Of a DNA stretch of 64,000 nucleotides, positions 35,332 to 42,932 are shown in pieces. The number at the start of each line of letters is the position of its first letter. Within the stretch, counting starts at the first letter, position 1. A program made the position numbers and the translations under genes. Source of the stretch: Hyphomicrobiales bacterium (lineage in GTDB: Bacteria > Pseudomonadota > Alphaproteobacteria > Rhizobiales > RI-29). Below the pieces are notes generated by a model. The model was not told the DNA's origin. It did not search any database and saw only the letters and a program-made list of their open reading frames with translations. The stretch lies in NCBI GenBank assembly GCA_016125495.1, contig WGLQ01000004.1, forward strand, positions 124,001 through 188,000, read 5' to 3'.

Positions 35332-36285
35332 ATGACCCGCCTCCAGGCCGACTTCCTCCTCCTCCTCACCGCGATCATCTGGGGCACGGCGTTCGTTGCC
35401 CAGAAGACCGCGCTCGATGCCGTCGGCCCGCTGTCGTTCGCGGCGGCGCGATTGCTGCTGTCCGCCCTGGTGGTCGCGCCGCTCGCGATCCTCGAGGTGC
35501 GACGCCTGCGCCGGCTCCACGGCTCTGGGCATCCGGCGGACGGCGCGCCCGCCCTCGCGCCGCTCGGGACGCCACGCTCGCTGGCGCTGTTCCTGGCGAC
35601 GGGGCTCGCCTTCTGCTGCGGCTCCCTCCTCCAGCAGGTCGGCATGCTGACGACGTCGGTCACCAACACCGGCTTCCTGACGACGGTCTACGTCGTGCTC
35701 GTGCCAATCGTCGTCTGGCTGTTCTTTCGCCGCCCGCCGGCCGCCTACGTCTGGCTTGCCGCCGCGTTCTCCATCACGGGCGTCTGGTTGATCGGCGATG
35801 CGACATTGTCCGCGCTCACCGTCGGCGACCTCCTGGTCCTGGCCGGCGCCGTGTTCTGGGCCCTGCACGTCGTCCTCGTCGGCATGCTCGTCATGCGCAC
35901 GGGCGCCCCGTTCCTCGCCGTCTTCGTGCAGTATCTGTTGACCAGCCTCATTGCCGCGCTCCTGCTGCCGGCCTTCGAGACCTTCGACCTTTCAGCCCTC
36001 GCCCGCGTCGTGCCGGAATTGCTCTATGCCGGCATCGTTTCGGGCGCGATCGGCTTTTCCCTTCAGGCGATCGCGCAGCGCCACACCCCGGCCCCCGAGG
36101 CGGCCGTCATCATCGGCTCGGAAAGCCTCTTTGCCGCGATGGCGGGGGCCCTCCTCCTCGGCGAGCGCCTGAGCCTCCTCGGCGCCATGGGCTGCGCGCT
36201 GGTGTTCGCCGCCATGCTGATCGTCGAACTGACCCCCGTGGCCCGGCGCTGGTGGATGCGCCGGACGGGCGCGGCGGCGGTTTGA
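35332..36285 (+). CDS. EamA-family (DMT superfamily) metabolite exporter
   Basis: A 317-residue protein with ten membrane helices in two EamA repeats. Typical signs are the opening LLTAIIWGTAFVAQKTALDAV, GLAFCCGSLLQQVGMLTTSV, and the second repeat ending PEAAVIIGSESLFAAMAGALLLGERLS. Family members export amino acids, metabolites or drugs. It is on the same strand as the redoxin. The AT-rich accessory insert begins just after its stop codon. Confidence 0.92.
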   Translation: MTRLQADFLLLLTAIIWGTAFVAQKTALDAVGPLSFAAARLLLSALVVAPLAILEVRRLRRLHGSGHPADGAPALAPLGTPRSLALFLATGLAFCCGSLLQQVGMLTTSVTNTGFLTTVYVVLVPIVVWLFFRRPPAAYVWLAAAFSITGVWLIGDATLSALTVGDLLVLAGAVFWALHVVLVGMLVMRTGAPFLAVFVQYLLTSLIAALLLPAFETFDLSALARVVPELLYAGIVSGAIGFSLQAIAQRHTPAPEAAVIIGSESLFAAMAGALLLGERLSLLGAMGCALVFAAMLIVELTPVARRWWMRRTGAAAV

Positions 36286-36342
36286 GGGGGGTGGGGAGCA
36301 GCTTGGGTCACGCCCGACAGGTCGGCTCGGTTGTCGTCGTAG

Positions 36343-36367
36343 GTCGGGTCGACGCAGGAGACCCGAC
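36343..36367. repeat. REP-like hairpin at the left edge of the AT-rich insert
   Basis: GTCGGGTC (36343-36350) and GACCCGAC (36360-36367) form a perfect 8-bp stem around a 9-base loop. The wider sequence (GTAGGTCGGGTC then GACCCGACG) resembles repetitive extragenic palindromes seen in many proteobacteria. No transposase is adjacent. Confidence 0.6.
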
Positions 36368-36511
36368 GTCGCCGCATTCACCCGCTTTGTCTGGTTTCGC
36401 CAAGGGCTCGACCCGACGGACGGCTGCAAATACATCGCCCGACTATGCGCCGCTCACACCACCTCCGCGATGATTTTCGGAGTCAAGGCAGCGCTGAGTG
36501 GCGATGCGGTT

Positions 36512-37402
36512 TTACTTCCACCCGTAATACTTGCCGATAAGATCAGCTAACACCGCTCCGGCTGCTCCGGTTCCGATCGTCCAAGTGCCATCTGCGGCCT
36601 TCGACACCATCTTGCCGATCCAAGCTGCAACTTTGGGGCCCAATCTTCCATCAGTCGATGGCGAGTCCTCCTCTACGGCCTTTTGCAGCTCGACAATGTC
36701 TGGTTCGCCCACGCCGTGACCACGCAAAGCGCTTCACAAGGATGAGAAATCCCGTATTATTATTTTTGCCGAAACGCTCGAATTTGTCGCTGTTCCAACG
36801 AGATTGGTCGGACCGTAAATCGTATTGTAAAATATCTGGTTCACGCGATCGGAGTTTTGTGGCATAGAGTAATCCTCTCGTGCGGCTTCCGGGAATGCCT
36901 TCTCCAAGTCTAGTGCAAATTTGAGGACTCTGGTTCGAACGCTCTCAGTAATGTGCTTGATCTTGCCTGAACTGACTTCGCAGACGGCTGAGACGATCTC
37001 CATTGAGGTAAACTTTTGTGTCCGCAGATAACCGACTAAATTTCCAACGTTGAATTGGAGTGGCTGTCCATCCTTTTTCAAGTGATCTTCGATTTCTCCG
37101 ATGCTCGCCCGATAGTGGTGGTGCATAAAATTTTTGCTATTTTTGTCCAGGAACTCAGGTGGCACAGTCCAATCGTTGACTGTCTTTGTCATATCGATCA
37201 TGTTAACCTTGATAAGCATTGGGAGAATCCGATATTCAGGAATTGTCGTTCCTTTGGGGTAGCCATTAAGTTCCCAGTCAAGCCAATCTTCGGCGGGCTT
37301 GCTATCGAGTTTGGCTGCTAACACCATGCATTTGCGGAGCAGAGTGCTCGTCGGCATCTGGTCGCCACTCGCACCAGCTATAATTTCTTCTAACAAGCTC
37401 AT
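36512..37402 (-). pseudogene. AbiTii-type abortive-infection protein gene interrupted by an in-frame TGA
   Basis: The frame encodes a start MSLLEEIIAGASGDQ and STLLRKCMVLAAKLDSK, then DWELNGYPKGTTIPEYRI, the signature of the AbiTii domain found in phage-defence proteins. It stops at a TGA (36734-36736) after 222 residues, but the same frame continues past that codon as SALRGHGVGEPDIVELQKAV and ends GKYYGWK before TAA at 36512. That continuation (helical segment, GKMVSKAADGTW, GAAGAVLADLIGKYYG) is the normal C-terminus of AbiTii proteins as I recall them. So one nonsense codon splits a ~296-codon gene. Read-through or restart at the TTG at 36727 could still make both parts. Base composition is clearly lower in G+C than the neighbours (45% by my count of bases 36901-36960), indicating transfer. 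Confidence 0.8.
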
Positions 37403-37601
37403 TGCAGAACCACCCGGTTGAGAATAGCCTTGGATTATCTCAGTCTAGTTGTCGGTGCGATTTCGGCAACTCTTTTCAGCGATCTTCTGCAGGTTGTGGA
37501 CAAGGCCGATTTGTCGCACCTGCTTTCTCCACCCCCTCGCTTCCACACACCCCATTGCACTCGCCGCGCAACCGGCTACACTCCACCGCGATGGGATAGC
37601 G

Positions 37602-37922
37602 TTGCGACATCTCGCGGTCGCCGCCGGTTTGCTCGCCTTCTGGGTGGGCGCGCCCGGCAGCGGGGCCGCCGACGGCACCGGGGCGACGCCGGCCTCGAGC
37701 CTGCGCGCTTCGAGCGCGGCGTCGTCGCGCCCGCCGTTCACCGACAACCCGGCCCAGCAGGCCCACATCCCCTGCACCTGCCGCTACAAGGGCGCCGACA
37801 TCGCGGTCGGCGACACCATCTGCATGCGCACCGCCAAGGGCCTCGTCCGCGCCACCTGCAGCCGCGTCCTCAACAACACCTCCTGGACGATCACCCGCGA
37901 GCCCTGCGACGCCACCTCGTGA
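37602..37922 (+). CDS. Small exported Cys-containing protein
   Basis: A ~106-residue protein starting with TTG at 37602, with a hydrophobic leader (HLAVAAGLLAFWVGAPGSGAA) and a short mature domain: IPCTCRYKGADIAVGDTICM, VRATCSRVLNNTSW and EPCD. The spacing of five cysteines and the ending NNTSWTITREPC recall a widespread uncharacterised family of small periplasmic proteins in Hyphomicrobiales. No ATG is available; the frame is open further up, but that part runs into the AT-rich insert. The start is therefore uncertain. Confidence 0.6.
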   Translation: MRHLAVAAGLLAFWVGAPGSGAADGTGATPASSLRASSAASSRPPFTDNPAQQAHIPCTCRYKGADIAVGDTICMRTAKGLVRATCSRVLNNTSWTITREPCDATS

Positions 37923-38139: not shown

Positions 38140-39009
38140 ATGGATGCCCGCAAGCTGCTCGACGCCCTCACCGCCGCCGTCTCCGAGAACACCGAGAAGG
38201 TGCGCTCCGGCGAGACCGATCTGACGGGCCTCGCCCGTGACCTCCTCGGCCAGGCGACGCGCGGCGTTGGAACGGCCGCCCGCGACATCGGCGAGAGCAC
38301 CGGCGCCGGCGGCAAGATCGACGATCTCGTGCGCGAGCTTTCGGGTGGGCAAGGCGCGGGCGACCTGCTCGATCGCGCCAAGACCTGGGCCGGCGACAAC
38401 AAGGTCGCGGCCGGAACCATCCTCGGTGGCCTCGGCGCCCTGCTCATCGGCACGCGCAGCGGCCGCAGCCTCGCGACCGGCGCCGCCAAACTCGGCGGTC
38501 TCGTGCTCATCGGCGGTCTCGCCTACGACGCCTGGAAGCGCCATCAGGCCCGCACTGGCGGAGCGGCGCCCGCCGGGTCCGTGCCAGCCCACCGCGACGA
38601 CTACGACGAACTCCGGGCCCCCGCCGGCTCCGGCTTCGAGCCGGAGGCGCTCAGCCAAGCCGACGCCCGCCGCTATCTCGGCGCCATGATTGCCGCCGCG
38701 ATGGCGGATGGAAACGCCGATTCCGCCGAACGCGCGCACATCATCGCGGGCCTGCGCCAAGCCGGCATCGACGCGCCGACCGTCGGCGCCCTCGAAGGCC
38801 TCTTCGCCAACCCGCCGACCATCGCGGATTTGACCGAAGGCCGTCCGAGCCCCGCCGAGGCGACCCGCATCTATGCCGCCGCCCGCCTCACCATCGAGCC
38901 GGACACCTCCGCCGAGCGCACCTTCCTCGCCCGCCTCGCCGATGCCCTCGGGCTCGACCCGGCTCTCGCCCTCGACATCGACCGTGAGGTCGCCTCGGTA
39001 CGCGCCTGA
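38140..39009 (+). CDS. DUF533 (TerB-like) membrane protein
   Basis: A 289-residue protein. The N-terminal ~90 residues are charged and helical. Residues ~88-130 contain Gly-rich hydrophobic stretches (AAGTILGGLGALLIGTRSGR, LGGLVLIGGLAYDAWKRHQ), probably one or two membrane segments. The C-terminal domain from ~170, ADARRYLGAMIAAAMADGNADSAERAHI, matches the TerB-like/DUF533 fold (YebE), whose acidic residues can bind metal. The ATG at 38140 follows AAGGA. It may take part in envelope stress; no specific role is known. Confidence 0.85.
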   Translation: MDARKLLDALTAAVSENTEKVRSGETDLTGLARDLLGQATRGVGTAARDIGESTGAGGKIDDLVRELSGGQGAGDLLDRAKTWAGDNKVAAGTILGGLGALLIGTRSGRSLATGAAKLGGLVLIGGLAYDAWKRHQARTGGAAPAGSVPAHRDDYDELRAPAGSGFEPEALSQADARRYLGAMIAAAMADGNADSAERAHIIAGLRQAGIDAPTVGALEGLFANPPTIADLTEGRPSPAEATRIYAAARLTIEPDTSAERTFLARLADALGLDPALALDIDREVASVRA

Positions 39010-39309
39010 GGCGCACCGGGGCTCACGCGACCCGACTCGGCGCGCGGCCTTAAATCGAATTTCAACCGGACCGCGGTACGGTCGCGCGATGTTGCGTCGG
39101 CAGGTCGGCTTGGTGCGGTTGGGCAGCGATGGCGAGCTGCGGAACCGCTGCTCCTCCTGGGGCGCAACGCCGTGTCGGGTCGTGCCCGGGTCCATGCGCA
39201 TGTCGGCGTTCTCGCTCTGCCCGACGGTCGCAGCGGATTTCTCGGCATGCGCGCGCGGCGTCGGGGCGGGCGCCAGCGGGTTTCGGACCCGCTGACCAGG
39301 AGGACGAGC

Positions 39310-40116
39310 ATGGCAAGGCGGGTATCCCAGGATCGCCTCAATACCGCTCTCGGCGTCAATCGCGGCGTGCCCGCCGTGTTGCGCGCATCGAGCCCCCCGG
39401 CGCGCGACGAGGAGGACGATGGCGGCGGCGCGATCGACCAGATCGTCGGCGTCCTCTTCGGCATCGCCGGCATCGCGTTTGCCGGCTTTCTCCTCTACGA
39501 GGGCATTTCCATGGCCGGCCTGCGCCAGCAGACGGCCAGCGAAATGGCTCGGATCAGGGCTGTCACCGATCCCCAGGCGAGCCCGCTCTATCGCGACGCG
39601 GACCGGTCCATCCTCTCGGCCTGCTTCGGCGCCGAGCCCGATTCCGGCAATCAGCGCTCCGCGCTCGTCGAGCGCGATGCGGCGGTCGGCCAGTACGCCT
39701 CGTTCCTCGTCTGCGCCATGCAGATGCAGCGCGACCGGCTCTGCGACGGCAAGGCGCGCGGCCAGCTCGTCGAGCAGATCGACCGCTACCGCCAGGTCCG
39801 CTACGATCTCGCCGAACTCCACAATTCGCACCTCACCGCCGCCGGCGTCCGTGTCGCCATGAACACCGGCGATCTCCTGGCGGATGTCTCGGGCACCATG
39901 AACGGTCAGGGGACCGGCACGACGGTGGCGCAATTCCAGCGGGTTCCCGAGGTGCGAAACGATCGCTTCGATGCCCGCGTCGGCTTCCAGCTGGAGGATC
40001 TGGTGCGCTCCGGCTACCTCGACCGCAGCGACTTTGCCGGCGTCTTCGGCGGCGTCTCCGGTGAGATCGCGCGTTTCGTCGAGGTGCCACCGAGCGGCCG
40101 CCAGCCCTGCGGCTGA
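39310..40116 (+). CDS. Single-pass membrane protein of unknown function
   Basis: A 268-residue protein with a ~40-residue acidic cytoplasmic N-terminus (PPARDEEDDGGGAID), one membrane helix (IVGVLFGIAGIAFAGFLLYEG) and a ~200-residue extracytoplasmic domain with four cysteines (ILSACFGAEP, FLVCAMQMQRDRLCDG, and a C-terminal Cys) that probably form disulfides. AGGAGG is six bases before the ATG at 39310. No family recognised. It lies between the DUF533 gene and uvrB on the same strand. Confidence 0.78.
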   Translation: MARRVSQDRLNTALGVNRGVPAVLRASSPPARDEEDDGGGAIDQIVGVLFGIAGIAFAGFLLYEGISMAGLRQQTASEMARIRAVTDPQASPLYRDADRSILSACFGAEPDSGNQRSALVERDAAVGQYASFLVCAMQMQRDRLCDGKARGQLVEQIDRYRQVRYDLAELHNSHLTAAGVRVAMNTGDLLADVSGTMNGQGTGTTVAQFQRVPEVRNDRFDARVGFQLEDLVRSGYLDRSDFAGVFGGVSGEIARFVEVPPSGRQPCG

Positions 40117-40202
40117 GCCGGCGACGGGGCGCGCCCGGCCACCCACGATGAACGCGGCCGCAGGCATTGATCCGGCGGCCGGGCGCGGCCATAGTCCCGT
40201 CC

Positions 40203-42932
<2,730 letters not shown>

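What the first reader, a model, noticed from the sequence alone, without database searches (positions are those of the whole stretch)
36512..37402. AbiTii phage-defence gene split by a single in-frame TGA
The upstream part carries the AbiTii signature and the frame continues unbroken past the TGA at 36734-36736 into a C-terminus (GVGEPDIVELQKAV to GKYYGWK) that looks like the normal end of the family. A single CGA-to-TGA or similar change would explain it. Alternatives are recent inactivation, assembly error, read-through, or two subunits with restart at TTG 36727. A freshly broken defence gene in an AT-rich insert is informative about phage-host dynamics.
Basis: partly seen in the sequence, partly recalled or inferred. 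Interest (0 to 1): 0.68.

Follow-up and report, generated by a model that had tools for sequence, protein, structure and literature searches.

The report
AbiTii defence gene cut by TGA
A foreign, probably once intact phage-defence gene (AbiTii family) in an alphaproteobacterium is cut by a single in-frame stop codon, most likely a recent loss-of-function mutation, which is an ordinary fate for genes of this kind.

Summary
Confirmed: on the minus strand, 37402-36512 is one frame of 296 sense positions cut once, by TGA at 36734-36736 (codon 223). The 222-residue upstream part is an AbiTii protein (PF18864, 127.9 bits, cut-off 27.6). The downstream 73 codons are the family's normal C-terminus: an intact 296-residue relative is 72% identical end to end, and in a chosen set of 16 full-length relatives with the same tail, 16 of 16 have a sense codon at that position. 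The downstream part has evolved as protein (dN/dS 0.10; upstream 0.14) and shows no second stop or frameshift, so the stop is probably young. Selenocysteine, reassigned TGA, restart at TTG 36727 and a structured read-through signal lack support. The product would lose a C-terminal helical domain. Best reading: a recently inactivated, horizontally acquired, solitary defence gene. Sequencing error, low-level read-through and a functional short form are not excluded; two viral contigs hold AbiTii frames that end in the linker. In 4 of 16 other alphaproteobacterial genomes with AbiTii hits the copy looks truncated or split. Low interest.

The parts
36734..37402 (-). AbiTii ORF as it stands, 222 aa, ATG 37402 to TGA 36734-36736
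   Evidence: PF18864 E 7.1e-37 on residues 2-177; PADLOC AbiTii E 5.1e-39
36734..36736 (-). In-frame TGA at codon 223, in the first helix of the C-terminal helical domain (helix 219-228 in the model of the relative L002)
   Evidence: helix; 16 of 16 chosen relatives have a sense codon here
36512..36733 (-). Downstream continuation: 73 codons of family C-terminus and TAA
   Evidence: 75% identical to L002's tail, dN/dS 0.103; aligned in A3
36430..37540 (.). AT-rich insert that holds the gene; limits approximate
   Evidence: composition profile
35332..36285 (+). Left neighbour, EamA-family transporter
   Evidence: Pfam PF00892 E 1.2e-32
38140..39009 (+). Right-hand neighbour, DUF533 gene; followed by uvrB at 40167-42932
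   Evidence: Pfam PF04391; UvrB domains; DUF533 and uvrB lie together in 3 of 8 fetched relatives

Best explanation
A full-length (296-residue) AbiTii gene came into this genome by horizontal transfer as a solitary AT-rich insert, was kept under protein-level selection, and was then cut recently by one nonsense mutation at codon 223. Ribosomes starting at ATG 37402 now release a 222-residue protein that has the AbiTii domain and linker but lacks the C-terminal helical domain, so its defence function is most likely lost or strongly reduced. Shown here: the frame, the family, full-length relatives, the selection signature, the absence of other stops or frameshifts. Inferred: that the stop is real, recent and inactivating, that transfer was horizontal, and that the protein defended against phage.
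For: Full-length relatives: L002 72% over residues 1-296; 55 of 80 plasmid records cover at least 80% of the query in one place; 16 of 16 chosen full-length relatives pass the TGA position with a sense codon. dN/dS 0.103 downstream against 0.143 upstream. Foreign composition and patchy distribution, 9 of 297 order genomes and 9 of 385 class genomes, own included in both. Different neighbours in the relative L002 (EamA and DUF533 here, short-chain dehydrogenase there). Truncated or split copies in 4 of 16 other genomes with hits.
Against: No reads, no second genome of the GTDB family held, so the stop could be an error or a rare variant. AbiTii frames that end in the linker exist elsewhere (L066, L068), so the short product might work. 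Low dN/dS in the tail also fits a tail still made at times, and dS near 1.4-1.6 dates poorly. The consensus scan found no promoter-like site on the gene's strand. No test of defence activity.
Confidence: 0.75

Rival explanations
1. The TGA is a sequencing or assembly error and the gene is intact.
For: Single-base departure in an otherwise perfect frame; reads could not be seen.
Against: No other interrupted gene seen in the window: of four in-frame junctions, three were read and separate two different genes; the fourth (37784) lies antisense to a small gene and was not read in frame. The genome is 99.35% complete with 0.2% contamination.
Confidence: 0.1
2. The 222-residue short form is a working protein: the AbiTii domain and linker suffice, and the tail is dispensable in this host.
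For: Viral contigs L066 and L068 hold AbiTii frames of 220 and 219 codons stop to stop (211 and 199 aa from the start I chose) that end in the linker with no tail seen downstream; L010 and L011 end soon after the domain.
Against: Those belong to other branches of the family; in this branch 16 of 16 chosen relatives keep the tail and it is under selection.
Confidence: 0.07
3. Low-level UGA read-through gives some full-length protein.
For: UGA is the leakiest stop in E. coli, usually read as Trp, more so in the cold and in starvation (PMC11126739, passages seen). The position tolerates many residues.
Against: No structure beyond chance in the 70 bases after the stop (z +1.35); no relative shares the stop (0 of 16); no Trp or Cys at that position in relatives.
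Confidence: 0.05
4. Two subunits, the second restarted at TTG 36727.
For: A TTG lies two codons after the stop in frame.
Against: Predicted anti-SD pairing before it is -2.1 kcal/mol, weaker than the mean of 400 random stretches of the window (-3.3) and than that of ATG 37402 (-7.1); no relative with a separately encoded tail was found.
Confidence: 0.02

Closest known systems
AbiTii domain proteins (PF18864; PADLOC AbiTii), named after AbiTii of the lactococcal two-gene AbiT system
   Same: AbiTii domain far over the cut-off; solitary proteins of about 300 residues with the same tail on plasmids and viral contigs
   Different: Cut by a TGA at codon 223; no HEPN match by Pfam; no AbiTi-like partner among ten scanned genes near it
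Pseudogenes of defence systems in general
   Same: A defence gene with a nonsense codon; PMC9252829 and PMC8791490 (passages seen) say that many defence genes are annotated as pseudogenes and that pseudogenes of R-M and CRISPR-Cas systems have been observed
   Different: The passages seen do not speak of AbiTii pseudogenes

Membership tests
AbiTii (PF18864) | AbiTii domain by curated profile | tested here: met
   127.9 bits against a cut-off of 27.6, residues 2-177
[quoted passage not shown]
   E44 is the only glutamate among the invariant columns of A3, and the model of L002 is alpha+beta; the passage does not say which glutamate is meant
AbiTii (PF18864) | Phage-defence activity | not testable with these tools
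   needs an experiment
AbiT two-gene system | Partner gene abiTi beside abiTii (two-gene operon, PMC3985639, passages) | tested here: not met
   none of ten genes near it matches a PADLOC model at E 1e-4 apart from UvrB's partial helicase-type matches
Selenoprotein (TGA read as Sec) | SelA and tRNA-Sec in the genome | tested here: not met
   no SelA match; the one tRNA-Sec hit over the cut-off is tRNA-Ser(CGA) by ARAGORN; the next seven hits are ordinary tRNAs, the last three were not looked at
Selenoprotein (TGA read as Sec) | Cys at the position in homologues | tested here: not met
   A, R, Q, T, S, K, V or E in 16 of 16
Nonsense-mutated pseudogene | Full-length homologues across the stop | tested here: met
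Nonsense-mutated pseudogene | The TGA is present in the organism's DNA | not testable with these tools
   no reads and no second genome of the family held
Nonsense-mutated pseudogene | Loss of function | not testable with these tools
   needs an experiment

The most novel reading that the evidence does not exclude
The TGA is a tolerated dose control: AbiTii is made here mainly as a 222-residue short form, with a little full-length protein by condition-dependent UGA read-through, so that a costly abortive-infection protein is kept at low level without being lost. The low dN/dS of the tail and the AbiTii frames elsewhere that end in the linker (L066, L068) do not exclude this.
Probability: 0.06. 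Interest if true: 0.55.

Novelty: new member of a known kind. Interest (0 to 1): 0.2.

Why it matters
As a defence gene caught soon after inactivation it adds one data point to the picture of rapid gain and loss of phage defences. Its wider use is as a natural truncation that parts the AbiTii domain from its conserved C-terminal helical tail, whose role no call told.

Tried and rejected
Selenocysteine: rejected. Reassigned TGA: rejected, 26 of 29 native-like frames of the window end in TGA. Restart: not supported. RNA structure after the stop: none beyond chance. Other broken genes in the window: none seen at the three junctions read; a fourth (37784) was not read in its own frame (one search used another frame).

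Fold: the model of the relative L002 (mean pLDDT 78.6, pTM 0.58) gave no match at E 0.001 or better in PDB or viral libraries and none with Z 5 or more in the second look. The C-terminal part was not modelled alone, so nothing is claimed about its fold. Solved structures by sequence: no convincing match.

Phage records: no match by protein or by DNA. Plasmids by DNA: none. Viral contigs: none with the single protein, 21 loci with the alignment. Empty site: DUF533 and uvrB lie together in 3 of 8 fetched relatives, but the left flank is not kept, so no clean empty site was found (one query of that script, 39308-40116, was out of frame and is ignored).

The repeat-bounded insert seen around L002 was not found around the window gene: a palindrome beside it (36343-36367) has one further copy, with 3 mismatches, in the genome, and the L002 repeat is absent from this genome at up to 3 mismatches. 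No PF01797 (Y1 transposase; the RAYT link is from PMC3390384, passages, and recall) in either genome.

Full report
OBSERVATION. On the minus strand the frame opened by ATG 37402 runs for 222 codons to TGA at 36734-36736 and then on, without another stop, to TAA at 36512-36514. Read with X at the TGA it is a 296-residue protein. Residues 2-177 match AbiTii (PF18864, E 7.1e-37, 127.9 bits against a cut-off of 27.6) and PADLOC's AbiTii (E 5.1e-39). The tail on its own matches no Pfam family.

RELATIVES ACROSS THE STOP. One genome contig holds a close relative: L002, MAG Rhizobiales bacterium Ga0077537, intact, 296 aa, 72% identical over residues 1-296 (the only confirmed locus of 257 stretches). 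In plasmids 80 records match, and in 55 of them one place covers at least 80% of the query; I fetched 7 of those 80. In viral contigs an alignment query found 21 loci; seven of them, L050-L056, match over nearly the whole protein and have the same tail. For the alignment I chose 16 full-length relatives with that tail (L002, L015, L021-L023, L050-L056, L071-L073, L075) and left out those with another C-terminal region. In 16 of 16 a sense codon stands at the position of the TGA; the residue is A, R, Q, T, S, K, V or E, never C or W. The position is variable, so which codon the TGA replaced cannot be told.

SELECTION AND AGE. Against L002, dN/dS (Nei-Gojobori, own script) is 0.143 for the 222 codons upstream and 0.103 for the 73 downstream; the bootstrap 95% range of the difference is -0.18 to +0.09; 38 of 149 upstream windows of the same length have as low a pN. 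So the tail evolved as protein for most of the time since the split. With dS near 1.4-1.6 this bounds the age only loosely, and it would also fit a tail that is still made at times.

WHAT IS LOST. A model of L002 (mean pLDDT 78.6, pTM 0.58) shows an alpha+beta part to about residue 170, a poorly predicted linker, and four helices at 219-228, 233-245, 256-270 and 278-293. The TGA falls in the first of these. The product would keep the AbiTii domain and linker and lose the helical tail, whose function no call told.

ALTERNATIVES. Selenocysteine: no SelA; the one tRNA-Sec hit over the cut-off is tRNA-Ser(CGA). Reassigned TGA: 26 of 29 native-like frames of the window end in TGA. Restart: TTG 36727 has weaker predicted anti-SD pairing (-2.1 kcal/mol) than the mean of 400 random stretches (-3.3) and than the gene's own start (-7.1). 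Read-through signal: the 70 bases after the stop fold no better than shuffles (z +1.35). General UGA leakiness is real in E. coli, mostly with Trp, and rises in the cold and in starvation (PMC11126739, passages), so a little full-length protein is possible. Sequencing error: no reads to look at. One search showed four in-frame junctions in the window (7426 and 37784 by the coding-signature test, 48945 and 60583 as abutting frames); I read three, and they part two different genes (by eye); 37784 lies antisense to the small ORF 37449-37922 and was not read in its own frame. Against expression: the consensus scan found no promoter-like site on the gene's strand.

SHORT FORMS ELSEWHERE. Viral contigs L066 and L068 (91% identical DNA) hold AbiTii frames of 220 and 219 codons, stop to stop (211 and 199 aa from the start I chose), that end in the linker; no tail was seen in the three forward frames after them. 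L010 and L011, two genomes of one genus, end soon after the AbiTii domain. So the short product could in principle work, though these are other branches of the family.

DECAY. AbiTii was found in 9 of 297 genomes of the order and 9 of 385 of the class, the window's own counted in both. Of the 16 others, 4 look truncated or split: L013 (the frame leaves the domain at profile position 166 of 189 and ends in unrelated sequence), L016 (two stops at the end of the domain), L018 with L020 (two pieces in one genome, about 1.8 kb apart) and L019 (110-codon fragment, below the family cut-off). The other 12 have open frames: 9 with a C-terminal region of one of two kinds, 1 (L017) with another tail, 2 (L010, L011) short. 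A plasmid copy in Caballeronia (L074) has lost its start, where an annotated IS4-family transposase gene overlaps it. That defence genes are often found as pseudogenes is in print (PMC9252829 and PMC8791490, passages).

CONTEXT. The gene lies in an AT-rich stretch, about 36430-37540, between an EamA transporter and a DUF533 gene followed by uvrB. DUF533 and uvrB lie together in 3 of 8 fetched relatives (L042, L043, L045); none of their genomes (G018, G011, G058) matched the AbiTii protein. No AbiTi-like or other defence neighbour was seen among ten genes scanned; UvrB's matches are partial, to helicase-type models. It is the only AbiTii in the genome. Only the window's own genome of its family is held.

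LITERATURE. PMC3710099 (passages): AbiTii is an alpha+beta domain with a conserved glutamate, in some proteins fused to HEPN domains; the lactococcal protein lacks HEPN. PMC3985639 (passages): AbiT is a two-gene system, and of the lactococcal genes cloned, abiTii among them, only AbiEii inhibited growth of E. coli. A search for 'PF18864' found 0 papers; a search for 'AbiTii' inside words found 28, of which 20 were listed, two of them on the protein.

VERDICT. The finding is correct and ordinary: most likely a recently interrupted, horizontally acquired AbiTii gene.

Noticed in passing
L002:4791-6050; L084:1707-3673; L085:1628-2734 (all genome G256): In the relative's genome a dispersed palindromic repeat (13 copies) forms convergent pairs; three pairs 1.1-1.9 kb apart each enclose one gene: the AbiTii relative, a reverse transcriptase (RVT_1; PADLOC RT_UG17 E 2e-37) and a 305-aa protein with no Pfam or PADLOC match. 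In other genomes of that family such pairs are, by eye in a cut listing, mostly about 100 bases apart. It looks as if single foreign genes land inside repeat doublets; no Y1 transposase was found.
   Followed up: partly
L066:4968-5630; L068:4923-5582: AbiTii frames on viral contigs that end in the linker, with no C-terminal domain seen downstream.
   Followed up: partly
L004, L005, L006, L008, L009, L012, L014 against L002, L015, L021-L023, L050-L056: AbiTii proteins carry two kinds of C-terminal region: one ending in a YYG-type tail as in the window, the other ending in a GNL.A.G-type helix (by eye).
   Followed up: no
L021:1335-3666: On an Agrobacterium plasmid the AbiTii relative is followed by an unknown 325-aa gene without a Pfam match and, on the other strand, a gene annotated as a HEPN domain protein.
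   Followed up: no
window 36331-36429: Palindromic sequence just downstream of the AbiTii gene's 3' end, GTCGGGTC...GACCCGAC, with only one further, diverged copy in the genome.
   Followed up: partly
L074:1871-2725: Caballeronia plasmid AbiTii gene that has lost its start where an IS4-family transposase gene overlaps it, domain remainder and tail still open.
   Followed up: partly
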